Shown: positions 36,557-43,554 of the stretch, piece after piece
Position numbering within the stretch: the first letter of the stretch is position 1
Layout of the letters: each line of letters starts with the position of its first letter
Origin: an uncultured Verrucomicrobiota bacterium
Lineage (GTDB): Bacteria > Verrucomicrobiota > Verrucomicrobiia > Opitutales > Intestinicryptomonadaceae
Length of the DNA: 59,778 nucleotides
Assembly (NCBI GenBank): GCA_949293415.1
Contig: CASFDK010000028.1
Location: forward strand, 1 to 59,778
Direction of reading: 5' to 3'
Notes under the pieces: generated by a model
What the model was told of the DNA's origin: nothing
Database searches by the model: none
Seen by the model: only the letters and a program-made list of their open reading frames with translations
Translations under genes and position numbers: made by a program

Positions 36557-37360
36557 CTAACGCTTCATCGCTCCGGCGAGCGAGGCGACAAACTCCGCCG
36601 CCGCGTCCAACGCCGCTTCTTCGCCCTTTTCGAGACGCGTCTTGAACGCGATGTCTACGAGCCTACTGCCCACAACAACCGCATCGGCGTTCAACGCCGC
36701 CGCGTGCGCCATCTCGGGGTTCGAAATTCCGAAACCCGCAGCAACGGGCAGAACCGAGGCCCTGCGAACCTGCGCCAAGCGTTCGCCGATACCCTCGGGC
36801 AACGCGCCGCGCGCGCCCGTTACGCCCGCAACCGTGACATAATAGAGAAATCCCGAGCCTTTTTTCGAAATCTTTTCGATTCGTTCCGGCGAAGATGTCG
36901 GCGCGGCGAGCGGAATAAACTCTATTCCCTTCGGCGCGGAAACCGAGACGACTTCATCCGCCTCTTCTAGCGGAACGTCCACCACGAGCAGCGAATCTAT
37001 GCCCGCCGCCGCGCATTCGTCGACTGTCTTTTCCGTGCCTAATTTGAAAATGGGGTTAAAGTACGAGAACATCACGAACGGCTTCTCCACGCCTTTCGCG
37101 CGCAGACGCTTCGCCATCGCTATAACCTTCCCGAGCGTCGCGCCGCCGTTGAGGGCCCTGCGGCTCGCCGCCTGTATCGATTTACCGTCCGCCATCGGGT
37201 CGGAAAACGGAACGCCGAGTTCAACGATGTCCGCGCCCGCTGCGCAAATGCGTTCTATCAATTTTTCGGAAAATTCAATTGTAGGGTCTCCGCAACTGAC
37301 AAACGCAACAAGTGCCGCCCTATTTTCCGATTTAAGTTGTTGAAATAATTTGGATGTCAT
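36557..37360 (-). CDS. trpA: Tryptophan synthase alpha chain
   Basis: TrpA splits indole-3-glycerol phosphate to indole and glyceraldehyde 3-phosphate, then passes indole through a tunnel to TrpB. The catalytic acids are E47 (ADIVELGVPFSDP) and D58 (MADG). The phosphate-binding GFGIS loop near 220 is present. The length of 267 residues is normal. It is the last gene of the trp operon, 11 bases after trpB. Confidence 0.97.
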   Translation of the reverse strand: MTSKLFQQLKSENRAALVAFVSCGDPTIEFSEKLIERICAAGADIVELGVPFSDPMADGKSIQAASRRALNGGATLGKVIAMAKRLRAKGVEKPFVMFSYFNPIFKLGTEKTVDECAAAGIDSLLVVDVPLEEADEVVSVSAPKGIEFIPLAAPTSSPERIEKISKKGSGFLYYVTVAGVTGARGALPEGIGERLAQVRRASVLPVAAGFGISNPEMAHAAALNADAVVVGSRLVDIAFKTRLEKGEEAALDAAAEFVASLAGAMKR

Positions 37361-37371
37361 ATGAGAAAATC

Positions 37372-38574
37372 CTATTTTCTGTTATTCAGATATTCGATTA
37401 CCGAAGCCATATCCTTGTCGCCGCGCCCCGAGAGGGAAACGACAATGATGTCGTCCTTCGAAAGCTCGCGGGCGTTGCGCATTGCAAGCGCGACGGCGTG
37501 CGAACTTTCGAGCGCGGGAATGATGCCCTCGTAACGGCAGAGGGCTTGGAAACCTTCGATTGCCGCTTGGTCGTCAATCGGTACATACGTCGCGCGCCCG
37601 CTCGTTTTCAGATAAGAGTGCTCGGGTCCGACTCCGGGGTAGTCAAGCCCCGCCGAAACCGAATGTGTGTCGAGAATCTGTCCAAAGTCGTCCTGCAAAA
37701 GATAGGTTTTGTTGCCGTGCAGAACGCCGACAGTTCCCGCCGCAAGACTCGCCGCGTGCCTGCCCGTCTCGATTCCGTCGCCCGCAGCCTCCGCGCCGAA
37801 AAGCGCAACCGACGGCTCTTCGATGAACGGCGCGAACATCCCTATTGCGTTGCTGCCGCCGCCTACGCACGCGACAACCTGAGCGGGAAGTCTGCCGAAT
37901 TTTTCGAGCATCTGCGCTTTCGTCTCGCGCCCGATAATCGCCTGAAACTCCTTTACCATCGTCGGATACGGGTGCGGACCCGCCGCAGTGCCGATAACGT
38001 AGAACGTGTCGTCAACGGTCGCAACCCAGTTGCGAAGAGCCTCGTTCATTGCGTCCTTTAGCGTAGCCGTGCCGTGTTCTACCTCGACGGCGTTGAGCTT
38101 TGCGCCGAGCATTTTCATTCTGCCGACATTCTGCGCCTGCCTGCGCACGTCCTCCGCGCCCATAAAAACTTCGCATTCCATTCCGAAGAGCGCGGCGACG
38201 GTTGCGGTCGCCACGCCGTGCATGCCCGCGCCCGTTTCGGCGATTAGCCTGCGCTTGCCCATTCTGCGGGCGAGCAGAACCTGTCCGACCGTGTTGTTTA
38301 CCTTGTGCGCGCCCGTGTGATTGAGGTCTTCGCGCTTGAGCAGAATGCGCGCGCCGCCGCAGTGCTCGGTGAGGCGTTTTGCATAGTAAAGCGGCGATGG
38401 TCTCCCAACATAGTCCTTTAAAATGGCGGCGTACTCCGACTGAAATGCGGGGTCGTCGACGGCTTTGAAGAACTCGGTTTCAAGCTCTTTGAGTGCGCTC
38501 ATCAGAGTTTCGGCAACGTACTGTCCGCCGAATTCTCCGAACTTTCCGTCTTTATTATATTCGGGTATTTTCAT
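37372..38574 (-). CDS. trpB: Tryptophan synthase beta chain
   Basis: This PLP enzyme joins indole and serine to tryptophan. The PLP lysine is K91 in [10 protein letters not shown]. The [13 protein letters not shown] segment that binds PLP phosphate and substrate is present, as is the [10 protein letters not shown] phosphate loop. It is the standard TrpB1 type (400 aa). It overlaps the end of trpF by 4 bases (ATGA). Confidence 0.97.
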
Positions 38575-39185
38575 TTTGATTTTAATTGTTTTAAATATTT
38601 TGAAATCAACGCGGTATCCTTTTTGCGCGGGTTGATTTCCACCGCGCTGTTCATATCGAGCCCGTAAGGTTCGACTTTATCGGCGGCCTCGAGCGCGTTT
38701 TCGAACGAGATTCCGCCCGCCAAAAAGCAGTCTCGGCGCGCCGCAAGGAGCGCGGCAAGCCGCCAGTCGGCGCGCACCCCCGTGCCCCCGCGCAACTTTC
38801 CGCGCGAGGAGTCTATCACGAGTTTGCCGCAGGGAAATTCCGCCGCCATTTCGACGTCGGCTTCCGACGAAAGCCAGACCGCCTTCCAGAGTTCCGCGCC
38901 CAAGCCGCGCAGACTTTCCAAATACCGCACGTCTTCGTTGCCGTGAAGCTGAACGGCAGCCAAGCCGTATTCCTCCGCCGTGCGCCGCACAAAATCTGCG
39001 GGCGAATCGACGAACACCCCGACGAGCTTCGCCGAAAGCCCCGCCGACGCCACCGCGCGGGTTGCGGATGCGTCGATACGGCGCGGGCTTTTTTCGGCGA
39101 AGATAAGCCCGATGTAGTCCGCGCCCGCAGCCGAGATTTCGGTTGCGTCTCCGAGATTCGAAACTCCGCAGATTTTGATTTTCAT
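38571..39185 (-). CDS. trpF: Phosphoribosylanthranilate isomerase
   Basis: TrpF performs the Amadori rearrangement of PRA to CdRP. The catalytic cysteine is C7 (KIKICGVSN). The general acid Asp lies in LVIDSSRGK. The C-terminal loop reads [13 protein letters not shown], where SSGVE..PG.KD is usual, so the Pro-Gly turn is replaced by Pro-Arg. The 204-aa length is normal. It overlaps both neighbours by 4 bases. Confidence 0.93.
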
Positions 39186-39970
39186 TTTGCCCCCAACAGT
39201 TTTTCCAGCTCGTCCGCAGGCGAATTCGACGCCATCAAAAGCGTGCCCACAAGCGCGGCGTCCGCGCCCGCATCGGTAGCCCGCAAAAGCGTTTCGCGCG
39301 AATTTACCCCGCTTTCGGCGACTTTCACAACGCCGTCCGGAATGAGTTTCAGAAGCCGCTCTGCCGTGGAAAAATCCAGTCCGAACGTACGCAGATTGCG
39401 GCAGTTCACCCCTGCGATGTCCGCGCCGTTTTCGAGAACGGTTTCAAGCTCCCGCTCGTCGTGCGCCTCGGCGAGAACGTCAAGTTCCAGACTTTTCGCA
39501 AACGCAAACAGCTCGGCGAAGCGTTCGGGCGAAAGCATTTTCGCAATCAGCAAAACCGCCGACGCGCCTATTGCCCGCGCCTGCGCAATCTGGTATTGGT
39601 CGTAGATGAAATCCTTGCGCAAAAGCGGAATCCCAACGCACTTTGCCGCGTCTTCGAGATATTCCGTAGAACCGAGAAAATAGTTGCGCTCGGTCAGAAC
39701 CGACAATGCCGACGCGCCCGCGCCCTCGAGCGCAACGCACAACTCCGACGGCCGAAAATCGGCGCGGATTATTCCCGCCGATGGCGACGCCTTTTTCATT
39801 TCGGCGATTATCGCGGGATTGCCGTTTTTGCGCCGAAGTGCCGCCATGAACGAAGCGCGCTTGGGCGCGGCTTTCGCGCGTTCGAGCATTTCGCCGAACG
39901 GCACCGCCGCCTTTTGCGCCTCGAGTTCGGCGCGGCTGCGTTCGCAGATTGTCTCCAAGATGTCGCTCAT
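39182..39970 (-). CDS. trpC: Indole-3-glycerol phosphate synthase
   Basis: TrpC closes the ring of CdRP to indole-3-glycerol phosphate. The start is the ATG at 39970, set by a 4-base overlap with the trpD stop; longer frames run into trpD. Signatures are IIAEMKKASPSAGIIRADF, LRKDFIYDQYQI and VNCRNLRTFGLDF. The length is 262 aa. It is not fused to trpF. Confidence 0.96.
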   Translation of the reverse strand: MSDILETICERSRAELEAQKAAVPFGEMLERAKAAPKRASFMAALRRKNGNPAIIAEMKKASPSAGIIRADFRPSELCVALEGAGASALSVLTERNYFLGSTEYLEDAAKCVGIPLLRKDFIYDQYQIAQARAIGASAVLLIAKMLSPERFAELFAFAKSLELDVLAEAHDERELETVLENGADIAGVNCRNLRTFGLDFSTAERLLKLIPDGVVKVAESGVNSRETLLRATDAGADAALVGTLLMASNSPADELEKLLGAK

Positions 39971-40989
39971 TGCCGTGAAAATTCTACGAGAGTTTCGAGT
40001 TTGCCGCGCGCCGCGCCCGAGTCGAGCGAGTCCTGCGCAAGTTCGAAAGCCGAAGCGAAATCCGCGCTTCCGCCGCCGGCCAGTATCCCCGCCGCCGCGT
40101 TCAGCAGGCAGGCGTTGCGCGCGCCGCCTTTGATTTTTCCGTCGAGAATTCCGCGCGTTATCCGCGCGTTCTCGGGCGCGTCGCCGCCGCGCAATTCGTA
40201 GATGTCGGCAAGTTCGGGGATGTATTTTAGCGGGTTGAATTCGTATGTCTTCACGAAGCCGTTTTTCAACTCGCTTACTTTCGTCGGAGCGCATGCGGAA
40301 ATTTCGTCAAGCCCGTCGCCGCCGTGGACGACGAACGCCCTGTGTCCGCCGAGCCGCTTGAGGCACTCGGCGACAAATTCGGTCATCGATGCGGAAAACA
40401 CGCCAACGACCTGCCCCGTCGCGCCCGCGGGATTGACGAGCGGCCCGAGCAAATTGAAAATCGTCCTAAAGCCAAGCAGCTTGCGGACGGGCGCGGCAAA
40501 GCGCATAGCGGGGTGCATTTTCGGCGCGAACAAAAACGCTATTCCGTGCTCCTGCAAACAGTGCTCCATCACTTCAGGATGGACATCGAGGTTGAAGCCG
40601 AGCGCGGCGAGAACGTCGCCCGAGCCGCATTTGCTCGCCGCCGCCCTGTTGCCGTGCTTAGCCACGGGAACGCCCGCGCCCGAAACGATGAACGCCGAAG
40701 TTGTCGAAATATTGAACGTGTTCATTCCGTCGCCGCCCGTGCCGCAAGTGTCTATCGGCGGACGCGCGCCGGCATTGACAAACGCCGCCTTTTTGCGCAT
40801 TGCCGAAGCCGCGCCCACAACTTCGTCGACCGTCTCGCCCTTCATCTTTAGAGCCGCAAGAAACGCTGCAAGGACCGTCGCGTCGACCTTGCCGTCCATA
40901 ATTTCGTCGAAGACAGCCCTGCTCTCGTCGAACGAAAGGTTCGCACGCAAGTCGGCAATCTTTTTCAGTGCTTCGGAAGTCGCGATCAT
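39967..40989 (-). CDS. trpD: Anthranilate phosphoribosyltransferase
   Basis: TrpD transfers phosphoribose from PRPP to anthranilate. The PRPP-binding motif DTCGTGGDGMNTFNIST is present, as are KHGNRAAASKCGSGDVLAALG and the VVHGGDGLDE loop. The length is 340 aa. It is a separate protein, not fused to trpG. It overlaps trpG and trpC by 4 bases each. Confidence 0.97.
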   Translation of the reverse strand: MIATSEALKKIADLRANLSFDESRAVFDEIMDGKVDATVLAAFLAALKMKGETVDEVVGAASAMRKKAAFVNAGARPPIDTCGTGGDGMNTFNISTTSAFIVSGAGVPVAKHGNRAAASKCGSGDVLAALGFNLDVHPEVMEHCLQEHGIAFLFAPKMHPAMRFAAPVRKLLGFRTIFNLLGPLVNPAGATGQVVGVFSASMTEFVAECLKRLGGHRAFVVHGGDGLDEISACAPTKVSELKNGFVKTYEFNPLKYIPELADIYELRGGDAPENARITRGILDGKIKGGARNACLLNAAAGILAGGGSADFASAFELAQDSLDSGAARGKLETLVEFSRQ

Positions 40990-41564: not shown

Positions 41565-43073
41565 CTATTTCCTTCCAAGTTCGGCTACGTCGATCGATTC
41601 GAGATTGTGCGCCGCCTCGATTGCCCTTGCAACGGCGCGCGCCTTCATGCGGGTCTCCTCGTATTCGGATTCGGCGTTCGAGTCGTAGACAATGCCCGCG
41701 CCCGCCTGCACCGACGTTATGCCGTCGCAAATTTGGAGAGTTCTGATTGTAATCGCCAAGTCCATATTGCCGTCGTAGCCGATGTATCCGACCGCCCCGC
41801 CGTAGCAGCCCCTGCGCTCGGGCTCGAGCTCGTTGATAATCTGCATCGCGCGGATTTTAGGCGCGCCCGAAAGAGTGCCCGCGGGGAAGGCGGCGGCGAG
41901 AGCGTCGAACGCGTCCACTCCCTTTTTGACCTCGCCCGAAACGTCGGAGACAAGGTGCATGACGTGCGAATACCTTTCGACCGTCATAAAGTCGCCTACC
42001 TGCACACTGCCCGCCTCGCAGAAACGCGAGAGGTCGTTGCGCCCCAAGTCGACAAGCATAAGGTGCTCGGCGCGTTCCTTTTCGTTCGAGAGAAGCTCGT
42101 CGGCAAGCTTGATGTCCTCGTTTTCGTCCGAGCCCCTGCGGCGCGTGCCCGCAATCGGTCGGACGTGTGCCCTGCCGTCGCAGAAGCGCAGAAGCGTTTC
42201 GGGCGAAGAACCCACGAGATATTTTTCGCCCATTTTCAGGCAGAACATATACGGCGACGGATTTATGAGCCTCAACGCGCGGTATGCTGCAATCGGGTCG
42301 ATGGGCGCGTTCGTCGAGAAACGCTGCGACGGCACAACCTGAATGATTTCGCCCTGTCTTATATACTCCTTCGCCTTTTCGACCATCCCGCAGAAGTCGT
42401 CGTGCGACATATTCGACTTCAGCCTGATTTCGCCGATATTCTGCGCCGTCAGTTGGCGGCGGCGCGGCGACTTGTAGATTTCGGACATCTTCTCCACCCT
42501 AGCGCAGGCGTCTTTGTAGGCGGCTTCGGGCGAATCGAATTGGTCGATATTGGCGCAAGCCACGATTTTCGCGGTGTGGCGCAGATTGTCGAATATTATG
42601 ATGTCGTCGTAGATGCCGAAAAACGCGTCGTCGAACTTGCGTTCGCCCTTTGGCTCGGGCAGGCGTTCGAAGAGGTTTACGCACTCGTAGCCGAAGTAGC
42701 CGACAGCTCCGCCGAAGAAGCGCGGAAGCGTGGCGAGCTTGGCGGGTTTGCGCGATGCGAGGTAGTCGCGGAGCGGCGCAAGCGGGTCGAGCCCCTTTTC
42801 GGAGGTCGATTCAACCGTCCCGCCGTCGGCGAAGACTAACTTCGACTTTTTGCCGACAAGCGAGAAAGTCGCGCGCGGCGCAAAGCCTATGAAAGAATAG
42901 CGACCCCAGTTGTCGACGTTTTCCGCGCTTTCGAAGAGAAAGCAGTTTTCAAGCCCGTCGAGCTTGGTGAAGACCGAAACGGGAGTTTCCAAGTCGGCGA
43001 GCAATTCCGAATATACGGGTATTACGTTCGATTCCGAAGCGTACTTTTTGAATTGTTCAAGTGTAGGTGTCAT
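41565..43073 (-). CDS. trpE: Anthranilate synthase component I
   Basis: TrpE converts chorismate and ammonia to anthranilate. The start is the ATG at 43073 (MTPTLEQFKKYA), which follows the attenuator directly. The tryptophan feedback site LFESAEN...GRYS is near residue 45, so allosteric inhibition is expected in addition to attenuation. The catalytic chorismate-binding core holds IQVVPSQRF, PSPYMF and GTRRRGSDENED. The length is 502 aa. trpG follows after 3 bases. Confidence 0.96.
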   Translation of the reverse strand: MTPTLEQFKKYASESNVIPVYSELLADLETPVSVFTKLDGLENCFLFESAENVDNWGRYSFIGFAPRATFSLVGKKSKLVFADGGTVESTSEKGLDPLAPLRDYLASRKPAKLATLPRFFGGAVGYFGYECVNLFERLPEPKGERKFDDAFFGIYDDIIIFDNLRHTAKIVACANIDQFDSPEAAYKDACARVEKMSEIYKSPRRRQLTAQNIGEIRLKSNMSHDDFCGMVEKAKEYIRQGEIIQVVPSQRFSTNAPIDPIAAYRALRLINPSPYMFCLKMGEKYLVGSSPETLLRFCDGRAHVRPIAGTRRRGSDENEDIKLADELLSNEKERAEHLMLVDLGRNDLSRFCEAGSVQVGDFMTVERYSHVMHLVSDVSGEVKKGVDAFDALAAAFPAGTLSGAPKIRAMQIINELEPERRGCYGGAVGYIGYDGNMDLAITIRTLQICDGITSVQAGAGIVYDSNAESEYEETRMKARAVARAIEAAHNLESIDVAELGRK

Positions 43074-43085
43074 TTTGTTGAGCGC

Positions 43086-43116
43086 AAAAAAAAAGCGGCC
43101 CAGACAAAAGGCCGCC
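43086..43116 (-). terminator. Attenuator terminator in the trp leader
   Basis: In the minus transcript GCGGCC and GGCCGC pair around TTTTGTCTG and are followed by nine Ts. It lies between the leader peptide and trpE, so it would stop transcription before the structural genes. Confidence 0.9.
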
Positions 43117-43152
43117 AAAAGTTTAAACCGTTTTTAAACTCTATGCGACCTT
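43108..43152 (-). promoter_or_regulatory. Antiterminator pairing of the trp leader
   Basis: AAGGTCGC (43145-43152, the last sense codons of the leader) can pair over 8 bp, one G-U, with GCGGCCTT (43108-43115), the 5' arm of the terminator. Between them is a separate hairpin, AGTTTAAA/TTTAAACT at 43120-43140, which would be held as an internal stem. A ribosome stalled at the Trp codons leaves AAGGTCGC free, so the antiterminator forms; a ribosome that reaches the stop covers it. Confidence 0.75.
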
Positions 43153-43176
43153 ACGACTGAACCACCAATTCTGCAT
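43141..43176 (-). CDS. trpL: trp operon leader peptide (11 aa)
   Basis: The minus strand reads MQNWWFSRKVA followed by TAG. Two adjacent Trp codons (4 and 5) in an 11-codon frame just before an intrinsic terminator and trpE are the hallmark of a tryptophan attenuation leader. Translation rate over these codons reports charged tRNA-Trp. The ribosome binding site is weak (AAAAAACTA before the ATG). Confidence 0.88.
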   Translation of the reverse strand: MQNWWFSRKVA

Positions 43177-43222: not shown

Positions 43223-43228
43223 TGTCAA
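43223..43228 (-). promoter_or_regulatory. -35 box of the trp promoter
   Basis: A perfect TTGACA lies about 47 bases before the trpL ATG on the minus strand. A clear -10 box at the standard 16-18 base spacing is not visible, so an activator or a diverged -10 is possible. Confidence 0.4.
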
Positions 43229-43311: not shown

Positions 43312-43554
43312 ATGGAGCACTTAAAAAAGGACGTTAAAACTTATCTTCTGGTGGGAATCTTCGCAACCGTGTTGTTTTGGCCGCCGCTCGGCTTGGCGGC
43401 GGTAATCTTCGCCGAACGGGCAAAGATGTACATCGCCCTCGACAACCCCGCAAAAGCCCTGCTCTCGGCGGGAAAAGCCAAGTTCTGGTCGGCTGCGGCG
43501 GTGTTTGTCGGCGCGATAACCTACCTCGCGGCGGGGCTTTCGATGTTGTTCTAA
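43312..43554 (+). CDS. Dispanin/CD225-like small membrane protein (80 aa)
   Basis: Two hydrophobic segments (about 11-32 and 58-79) flank a loop of the form ERAKMYIALDNPAKALLSAG followed by KAKFWS. This fits the bacterial members of the CD225/dispanin family, whose loop reads roughly AK...AL..GD...A...S..AK.W. Bacterial roles are not known. The ATG is at 43312, with AAGGTTG some 15 bases upstream. It is monocistronic and followed by a terminator. Confidence 0.6.
   Translation: MEHLKKDVKTYLLVGIFATVLFWPPLGLAAVIFAERAKMYIALDNPAKALLSAGKAKFWSAAAVFVGAITYLAAGLSMLF

What the first reader, a model, noticed from the sequence alone, without database searches (positions are those of the whole stretch)
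43086..43176. Ribosome-mediated trp attenuator with an 11-codon leader and a short antiterminator
The minus strand shows, in order, a leader peptide MQNWWFSRKVA with Trp codons at positions 4 and 5, a stand-alone AGTTTAAA/TTTAAACT hairpin right after its stop, and an intrinsic terminator with nine Ts, before trpE. AAGGTCGC in codons 9-11 of the leader can pair over 8 bases with the terminator 5' arm. This gives a compact switch without the long 1-2 pause hairpin of the E. coli type. Leader attenuation is established in proteobacteria and actinobacteria; in this lineage it appears less documented to my knowledge.
Basis: partly seen in the sequence, partly recalled or inferred. Interest (0 to 1): 0.85.

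Follow-up and report, generated by a model that had tools for sequence, protein, structure and literature searches.

The report
Default-on tryptophan attenuator in Opitutales
In front of the tryptophan-making genes of what is likely an uncultured Opitutales bacterium lies a tiny 11-codon gene with two tryptophan codons and a transcription stop signal, conserved in its relatives, which is predicted to switch the genes off only when a ribosome finishes the tiny gene, so that, unlike in E. coli, an untranslated leader would leave them on.

Summary
It is very probably a ribosome-mediated trp attenuator. The leader recurs as 15 copies in 14 of 19 family genomes: 12 before trpE, 2 before trpB and 1 before trpA. 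The last three lie in two relatives in which no trpE or trpD was found, so the element stays with the remaining trp genes. Tandem UGG UGG is in all 15.

The Trp codons and the following CAG also pair with the terminator's 3' arm (133 of 135 cells). With AAGGUCGC:GCGGCCUU (118 of 120) and the central hairpin, the leader folds as one long antiterminator that captures both terminator arms. Without a ribosome, terminator probability is 0.00-0.03 in 15 of 15, against 0.96 for E. coli trpL. With a ribosome at the stop codon it is 0.98-1.00. The inferred logic is therefore default ON, without a strong I:II protector. A sister genus has a different WW leader with a strong I:II-like hairpin.

Rfam Trp_leader finds E. 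coli but neither the window nor four sampled copies. My searches listed no paper reporting it in this phylum. New variant of a known kind; no expression data.

The parts
43223..43228 (-). TTGACA, candidate -35 box of the trp promoter
   Evidence: a TTGAC box lies 46-84 nt upstream of the leader start in 15 of 15 copies, 46-53 nt in 11 of them; no shuffle control was made, the -10 is weak, and the consensus scan does not list this site
43141..43176 (-). leader ORF MQNWWFSRKVA with its stop codon; TGG TGG at 43167-43162
   Evidence: tandem TGG TGG in 15 of 15 copies
43157..43166 (-). segment A, GGUGGUUCAG: Trp codons plus CAG, predicted to pair with the terminator 3' arm
   Evidence: fold; 133 of 135 cells paired in 15 copies against 31-59% when the partner is slid
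43145..43152 (-). segment B, AAGGUCGC: predicted to pair with the terminator 5' arm
   Evidence: fold; 118 of 120 cells paired, 2 pairs with double changes
43120..43140 (-). central hairpin AGUUUAAA-AACGG-UUUAAACU, tip of the antiterminator
   Evidence: 126 of 135 cells paired against 13-73% when slid; 4 pairs with double changes, but slid versions show up to 5
43108..43115 (-). segment B', GCGGCCUU: terminator 5' arm, shared with the antiterminator
43094..43103 (-). segment A', CUGGGCCGCU: terminator 3' arm and end of the loop, shared with the antiterminator
43086..43094 (-). U-tract of the intrinsic terminator (nine T)
41565..43073 (-). trpE
   Evidence: PF00425 and PF04715
40986..41561 (-). 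trpG
   Evidence: PF00117; assignment by position in the operon
39967..40989 (-). trpD
   Evidence: PF00591 and PF02885
39182..39970 (-). trpC
   Evidence: PF00218 IGPS
38571..39185 (-). trpF
   Evidence: PF00697
37372..38574 (-). trpB
   Evidence: PF00291; homologues in 15 of 19 family genomes
36557..37360 (-). trpA
   Evidence: PF00290

Best explanation
An 11-codon leader ORF with tandem Trp codons and an intrinsic terminator lie in that order before trpE, and with a predicted antiterminator between them they likely act as a ribosome-mediated tryptophan attenuator that would terminate transcription only while a ribosome sits at the leader's stop codon. Shown by sequence and comparison: the ORF, the terminator, and the complementarity for two mutually exclusive folds with its conservation. 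Inferred: (1) when charged tRNA-Trp is short, the ribosome stalls on codon 4 or 5; its leading edge stops before segment B, so B pairs with the terminator 5' arm, the central hairpin zips the two together, and RNA polymerase reads into trpEGDCFBA. [quoted passage not shown] (3) With no ribosome, segment A (the Trp codons and CAG) also captures the terminator 3' arm, so the default is read-through. This is the opposite of E. coli trp, where an untranslated leader forms I:II plus the terminator (super-attenuation).
For: Tandem UGG in 15 of 15 copies. All 12 family genomes with this clade's trpE and its upstream DNA carry the leader. The leader precedes trpB in G004 and G009 and trpA in G004; in both genomes no trpE and no trpD was found. 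Pairing is kept at A:A' 133/135, B:B' 118/120, hairpin 126/135 and terminator 90/90 cells. Double changes occur in 1, 2, 4 and 1 pairs; slid versions of A:A', B:B' and the terminator show none. The codon after WW encodes F, Y, H, R or S but ends in C in 14 of 15, as the CAG:CUG pairing requires. P(terminator) is 0.00-0.03 with no ribosome and 0.98-1.00 with a ribosome at the stop in 15 of 15; E. coli trpL gives 0.96 with no ribosome. When the 5' arm has emerged, B:B' probability is 0.99-1.00 with the ribosome at either Trp codon, and the core of B is covered with the ribosome at the stop, for assumed footprint edges of 13, 15 and 17 nt, 15 of 15. No TrpR, T-box or TRAP was found in the window's genome.
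Against: There are no expression or footprint data. At equilibrium the stalled state does not clearly favour the antiterminator: P(terminator) is 0.9 or more in 5 of 15 copies and 0.03-0.71 in the other 10. E. coli trpL also gives 0.94 there and 0.96 at the stop, so for E. coli the method does not separate ON from OFF and the decision must be kinetic. The A:A' helix has only one double change, and its outer part is forced by UGG UGG and by the terminator sequence. The hairpin's double changes weigh little, because slid versions show up to 5 such pairs (6 cells, against 4 pairs and 11 cells). Some weak pairing inside the leader ORF exists: 2.3-6.7 kcal/mol beyond the hairpin. No Shine-Dalgarno-like motif is visible before the leader ATG (by eye), so translation is assumed. 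The family genomes are drafts, so absent genes may be assembly gaps.
Confidence: 0.9

Rival explanations
1. A conventional E. coli-type attenuator with a protector/pause hairpin I:II, so that an untranslated leader terminates (default OFF).
For: Same overall kind: tandem Trp codons, terminator, antiterminator. Sister genus g2 does have a strong I:II-like hairpin (GUCUUUC/GAAAGAC) after its WW codons. The leader ORF alone folds at -2.4 to -7.9 kcal/mol in the 15 copies, and E. coli's ORF alone at -6.8, so weak pairing there is not excluded.
Against: From ORF start to terminator the copies reach -7.8 to -13.0 kcal/mol, of which the central hairpin gives -4.3 to -8.0, against -23.1 for E. coli; P(terminator) without ribosome is 0.00-0.03 in 15 of 15.
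Confidence: 0.07
2. The switch is worked by a trans factor or tRNA (TRAP, TrpR, T-box) and the small ORF is incidental.
For: Terminator/antiterminator pairs are shared by several attenuator types.
Against: No Trp repressor, T-box or TRAP in the window's genome (94.8% complete), with controls ringing in 2, 5 and 1 of 14 named genomes; the only Rfam match at gathering score in the window is a tRNA elsewhere. TGG TGG stays in frame in 15 of 15 while neighbouring codons change.
Confidence: 0.03
3. An ordinary terminator of an upstream gene plus a chance ORF.
For: Short ORFs are common.
Against: The neighbouring gene (43312-43551, +) points away, so nothing upstream needs ending here. Conservation in 15 copies, also before trpB and trpA in trpE-less relatives; 7 of 1080 shuffles against 27 of 108 regions.
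Confidence: 0.01
4. The terminated leader RNA or leader peptide additionally acts in trans, as reported for peTrpL of Sinorhizobium meliloti.
For: Precedent only (PMC7298713, seen as search listing with the start of its abstract).
Against: Peptide residues after WW vary while the RNA pairing is kept.
Confidence: 0.04

Closest known systems
E. coli trp operon leader (trpL, Rfam RF00513)
   Same: Short leader ORF with tandem Trp codons, an intrinsic terminator before trpE, and an antiterminator that uses the terminator 5' arm (sequence; scheme from passages of PMC1183508).
   Different: E. coli has 14 codons and a I:II pause/protector hairpin; without a ribosome it terminates (P 0.96; super-attenuation, passages of PMC1183508). 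Here no strong I:II hairpin is predicted, the Trp codons pair with the terminator 3' arm, and the predicted default is read-through. RF00513 finds E. coli (E 5.6e-19) but none of the four homologous loci given to it, nor the window.
Actinobacterial trp attenuators (Corynebacterium, Streptomyces)
   Same: Double or triple UGG repeats, GC-rich terminator, antiterminator sharing complementary triples (passages of PMC1262725), also found before a separate trpB2A operon in C. diphtheriae.
   Different: The passages describe complementary triples gGCC-rGCy-GGCC; the capture of both terminator arms by the coding region, with a hairpin at the tip, is not described in the passages I read (figures are not held). 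No sequence alignment between the two was attempted.
trpB-first leader of the sister genus (G014, G016)
   Same: In-frame WW codons, then a terminator, before trp genes of the same bacterial family.
   Different: 28- and 25-codon peptides, strong I:II-like hairpin, P(terminator) 1.0 without ribosome, and a trpB-trpE gene order with a TrpE only 41% identical.
Lentisphaerota- and Kiritimatiellota-type trpE leaders (L038, L040, L044, L046, L048, L052, L056, L058)
   Same: Short ORFs with clustered Trp codons followed by a terminator before trpE.
   Different: Peptides differ and the sequences were not found by similarity to this leader; their alternative folds were not analysed.

Membership tests
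Ribosome-mediated (leader-peptide) amino-acid attenuator | Short leader ORF with clustered codons for the regulated amino acid | tested here: met
   TGG TGG in frame in 15 of 15 copies
Ribosome-mediated (leader-peptide) amino-acid attenuator | Intrinsic terminator between leader ORF and first structural gene | tested here: met
   Stem plus T-run in 15 of 15 (window); terminator pairs 90 of 90 cells
Ribosome-mediated (leader-peptide) amino-acid attenuator | Antiterminator that excludes the terminator and is left free by a ribosome stalled at the regulatory codons | tested here: met
   As a prediction: B:B' 118/120 cells; geometry holds for leading edges of 13-17 nt; equilibrium folding of the stalled state is mixed
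Ribosome-mediated (leader-peptide) amino-acid attenuator | Sits before genes that make the amino acid read by the leader | tested here: met
   Before trpE (12 copies), trpB (2), trpA (1)
Ribosome-mediated (leader-peptide) amino-acid attenuator | Read-through rises on starvation for that amino acid | not testable with these tools
   Needs expression data
E. coli-type trp leader (Rfam RF00513) | Match to the Rfam Trp_leader model | tested here: not met
   No Trp_leader match up to E 10 in the window nor up to E 0.01 in L122, L132, L127, L006; E. coli control E 5.6e-19. The other copies were not given to it.
E. coli-type trp leader (Rfam RF00513) | I:II protector/pause hairpin, default OFF when untranslated | tested here: not met
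   P(terminator) 0.00-0.03 without ribosome in 15 of 15, E. coli 0.96; prediction
T-box | Match to RF00230 | tested here: not met
   0 in the window's genome; controls ring in 5 of 14, over the cut-off in 2
TRAP-type attenuator | TRAP protein in the genome | tested here: not met
   PF02081: 0 in the window's genome; control rings in B. subtilis

The most novel reading that the evidence does not exclude
A distinct class of trp attenuator: the leader coding region captures both arms of the terminator in one long hairpin zipped by a central stem, so the switch is ON by default and OFF only with a ribosome at the leader's stop codon. It has no pause/protector hairpin and has been redeployed in front of trpB and trpA separately after loss of the upstream pathway.
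Probability: 0.6. Interest if true: 0.68.

Novelty: new variant of a known kind. Interest (0 to 1): 0.57.

Why it matters
If the default-ON logic holds, it is a minimal two-state design for ribosome-mediated attenuation with the opposite response to an untranslated leader from the textbook E. coli case, and a ribosome-free transcription assay can test it directly. It also adds conserved leader-peptide attenuation to Verrucomicrobiota. A 2010 survey named only Proteobacteria and Actinobacteria as having shown leader-peptide systems before its own Firmicutes case (passages of PMC2965389). The copies before trpB and trpA in relatives without trpE and trpD suggest a regulatory RNA following the surviving genes of a shrinking pathway.

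Tried and rejected
Horizontal transfer of the trp operon together with attenuation from Lentisphaerota-like donors: a quick TrpE tree of 102 rows puts the family's TrpE with the Lentisphaerota/Kiritimatiellota-type rows (SH-aLRT 99). However, an AU test does not reject grouping it with the Verrucomicrobiae-type TrpEs (p 0.256), so the transfer is not claimed. The association of Trp leaders with that TrpE group (11 of 11 family rows, 8 of 22 Lentisphaerota-type rows, 0 of 52 Verrucomicrobiae-type rows, 2 of the other 17) stands as an observation on a similarity-picked sample.

Wider spread of this exact RNA: the covariance model gives strong hits only in the family. In the order, 8 of 132 genomes drawn, all of the window's genus. 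In the phylum, 3 of 387 genomes drawn: two of the window's genus, and G363 (E 0.001). I rejected G363 because the hit lies opposite a 647-codon open frame and has no TGGTGG on either strand nearby. Both searches used stricter filters that lose weak matches. Antisense model hits at the same places come from the near-palindromic shape; hits at E 0.005-0.09 elsewhere in the family were taken as chance and not examined.

The first terminator scan lost true cases by a merging fault and was replaced. One row of the first folding script (G003) was cut short at a T-run and was redone. Rows dropped: L061 and L077 (2 of 80 named loci) have no usable upstream DNA and were left out; L032-L037 are the same contigs as G005, G012, G007, G003, G011 and G008 and were dropped before the counts. 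TrpE matches that got no locus were not scanned, except G006 (taken) and, at trpB, G014 and G016. Family genomes without the RNA: G010 and G015 (no trpE, trpB or trpD found), G017 (its trp contig starts inside trpD), G014 and G016 (other operon, other leader) (trpD was not sought in G016).

Equilibrium folding of the stalled state does not separate ON from OFF, either here or for E. coli. Papers; by title and abstract start, no listed paper reports a trp or other leader-peptide attenuator in Verrucomicrobiota or Lentisphaerota. Three lists were cut (20 of 30, 10 of 12, 10 of 15) and the library holds only open-licence PMC papers.

Full report
What is there. On the minus strand a candidate -35 box TTGACA (43228-43223) is followed by an 11-codon ORF MQNWWFSRKVA (43176-43141), the hairpin AGUUUAAA-AACGG-UUUAAACU (43140-43120), a terminator with nine U (43116-43086) and, 12 nt after the U-tract, the trpE start at 43073. 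Pfam supports the order trpE, trpG, trpD, trpC, trpF, trpB, trpA down to 36557. The neighbouring gene on the other side points away (43312-43551, +). Of the six named loci with 65-80% identical TrpE, five are uncultured Opitutales and one an uncultured Verrucomicrobiota, so the organism is taken to be a member of Opitutales, Verrucomicrobiota (inferred; the window itself is unnamed).

Conservation. A TrpE search hit 42 of 54 genomes, own included, some of these being paralogues. All 12 family genomes (window included) that carry this clade's trpE with its upstream DNA have the leader. A covariance model built from these 12 was run over the 19 family genomes. It gave strong hits (E under 1e-12) in 14 of 19, 15 copies in all. 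Three copies are new. G004 has one before trpB and one before trpA on different contigs; G009 has one before trpB, with a trpA frame overlapping the trpB end (Pfam). In both genomes, drafts of 97% and 93% completeness, no trpE and no trpD was found. The five family genomes without it are G010 and G015 (no trpE, trpB or trpD found), G017 (trp contig begins inside trpD), and G014 and G016, which have another trp operon. In the order, 8 of 132 genomes drawn hit, all from the window's genus. In the phylum, 3 of 387 drawn hit, one of them rejected.

Structure. The minimum-energy fold of the window leader is one long hairpin of -41.2 kcal/mol, z -7.4. Read 5' to 3' the segments are A (GGUGGUUCAG, the Trp codons and CAG), B (AAGGUCGC), the central hairpin, B' (GCGGCCUU, terminator 5' arm) and A' (CUGGGCCGCU, terminator 3' arm with the end of its loop). 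The antiterminator is A:A' plus B:B' plus the hairpin; the terminator is B':A'. In 15 copies, with gaps placed by hand for one inserted G, paired cells are A:A' 133/135, B:B' 118/120, hairpin 126/135 and terminator 90/90. Partners slid by 1-3 columns give 31-59%, 20-62% and 13-73% for the first three. The terminator gives 25-59%, except one slide (+3) at 44 of 45 cells. Changes on both sides occur in 1, 2, 4 and 1 pairs. Slid versions of A:A', B:B' and the terminator show none, but slid versions of the hairpin show up to 5 pairs (6 cells, against 4 pairs and 11 cells), so the hairpin's double changes weigh little. Covariation is therefore modest evidence overall. The codon after WW encodes F, Y, H, R or S but ends in C in 14 of 15. 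This fits RNA-level selection on CAG:CUG, the part of A:A' that the Trp codons do not fix and that lies in or at the edge of the terminator loop.

Ribosome geometry. At the moment the terminator 5' arm has emerged, and with the ribosome at either Trp codon, B:B' forms with probability 0.99-1.00 in 15 of 15. With the ribosome at the stop codon, the core of B is covered in 15 of 15. Both hold for assumed leading edges of 13, 15 and 17 nt. With the full terminator transcribed, P(terminator) is 0.98-1.00 with the ribosome at the stop and 0.00-0.03 with no ribosome, in 15 of 15; E. coli trpL gives 0.96 with no ribosome. The published account of E. coli says the untranslated leader prefers I:II and III:IV, called super-attenuation (passages of PMC1183508), so the control behaves as expected in that state. 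With the ribosome stalled, equilibrium values are mixed (0.03-1.00; 0.9 or more in 5 of 15), and E. coli also gives 0.94. The stalled state therefore rests on kinetics, which were not simulated beyond the single snapshot. Pairing inside the leader ORF is weak but not nil: beyond the central hairpin it adds 2.3-6.7 kcal/mol, against -23.1 kcal/mol for the E. coli leader up to its terminator.

Relation to other leaders. A scan of 108 trp upstream regions finds a clustered-Trp leader plus terminator in 27, against 7 of 1080 shuffles. Besides the 15 homologues these are eight Lentisphaerota- or Kiritimatiellota-type TrpE loci, two from other phyla (L063, L110) and both genomes of sister genus g2. 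The g2 leaders lie before trpB-trpE and contain a strong hairpin GUCUUUC/GAAAGAC soon after the WW codons, and P(terminator) is 1.0 without ribosome. One bacterial family thus appears to hold two attenuator designs. Rfam Trp_leader recognises E. coli (E 5.6e-19) but not the window or the four homologous loci given to it. The window's genome has no TrpR, T-box or TRAP at the tools' thresholds.

Literature. A 2005 comparative study describes classical trp attenuators in Actinobacteria (passages of PMC1262725). A 2010 survey states that, to its authors' knowledge, leader-peptide systems had not been shown outside Proteobacteria and Actinobacteria before their Firmicutes hisS case (passages of PMC2965389). 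Later Firmicutes work exists, for example a leucine-rich attenuator peptide in Staphylococcus aureus (PMC5794164, listing and abstract start only). Searches listed no paper on such attenuation in Verrucomicrobiota or Lentisphaerota, judged by title and abstract start; three lists were cut and the library is limited to open-licence papers, so this is not proof of absence.

Judgement. That this is a ribosome-mediated tryptophan attenuator is about 90% likely. The default-ON, protector-free logic is the new part and about 60% likely. It is a new variant of a known kind.

Noticed in passing
window 43312-43551 (+): 80-aa CD225/IFITM-like membrane protein gene (PF04505, E 5.4e-9) directly divergent from the trp leader.
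   Followed up: no
L160 and L161 (G016, G014), upstream of trpB: Sister genus has a different WW leader (MNIFAGADFSWWRLSDRK..., MNTSVCASFSWWRLSCRK...) with a strong hairpin after the Trp codons and a terminator, before a trpB-trpE operon.
   Followed up: partly
L052, L056, L058 (Victivallis-type), L044, L046, L048, L040, L038, upstream of trpE: Trp-rich leader peptides with terminators, unlike this one in sequence, e.g. GWRWQWRKPAMAV and WQWRWCGRGVP.
   Followed up: partly
L039, L040, L041, L044, L046, L048, within about 300 nt upstream of trpE: Recurrent motif around TGTTCT and GAAACA or GTTTCG, a clear inverted repeat GTTCTA...TAGAAC in L039 and L044, near the presumed promoter; perhaps a repressor site (seen by eye).
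   Followed up: no
L063 (Deltaproteobacteria MAG) and L110 (Krumholzibacteriia MAG), upstream of trpE: Clustered-Trp ORF plus terminator, LARWWCWHIGR... and LNPCTRKQNWRWSLWRWQ...; could be chance or attenuators in further phyla.
   Followed up: no
G004 C2 and C14 (L122, L132): trpB and trpA lie on different contigs, each with its own copy of the leader (88% alike), in a genome where no trpE or trpD was found; suggests synthesis of Trp from scavenged indole.
   Followed up: partly
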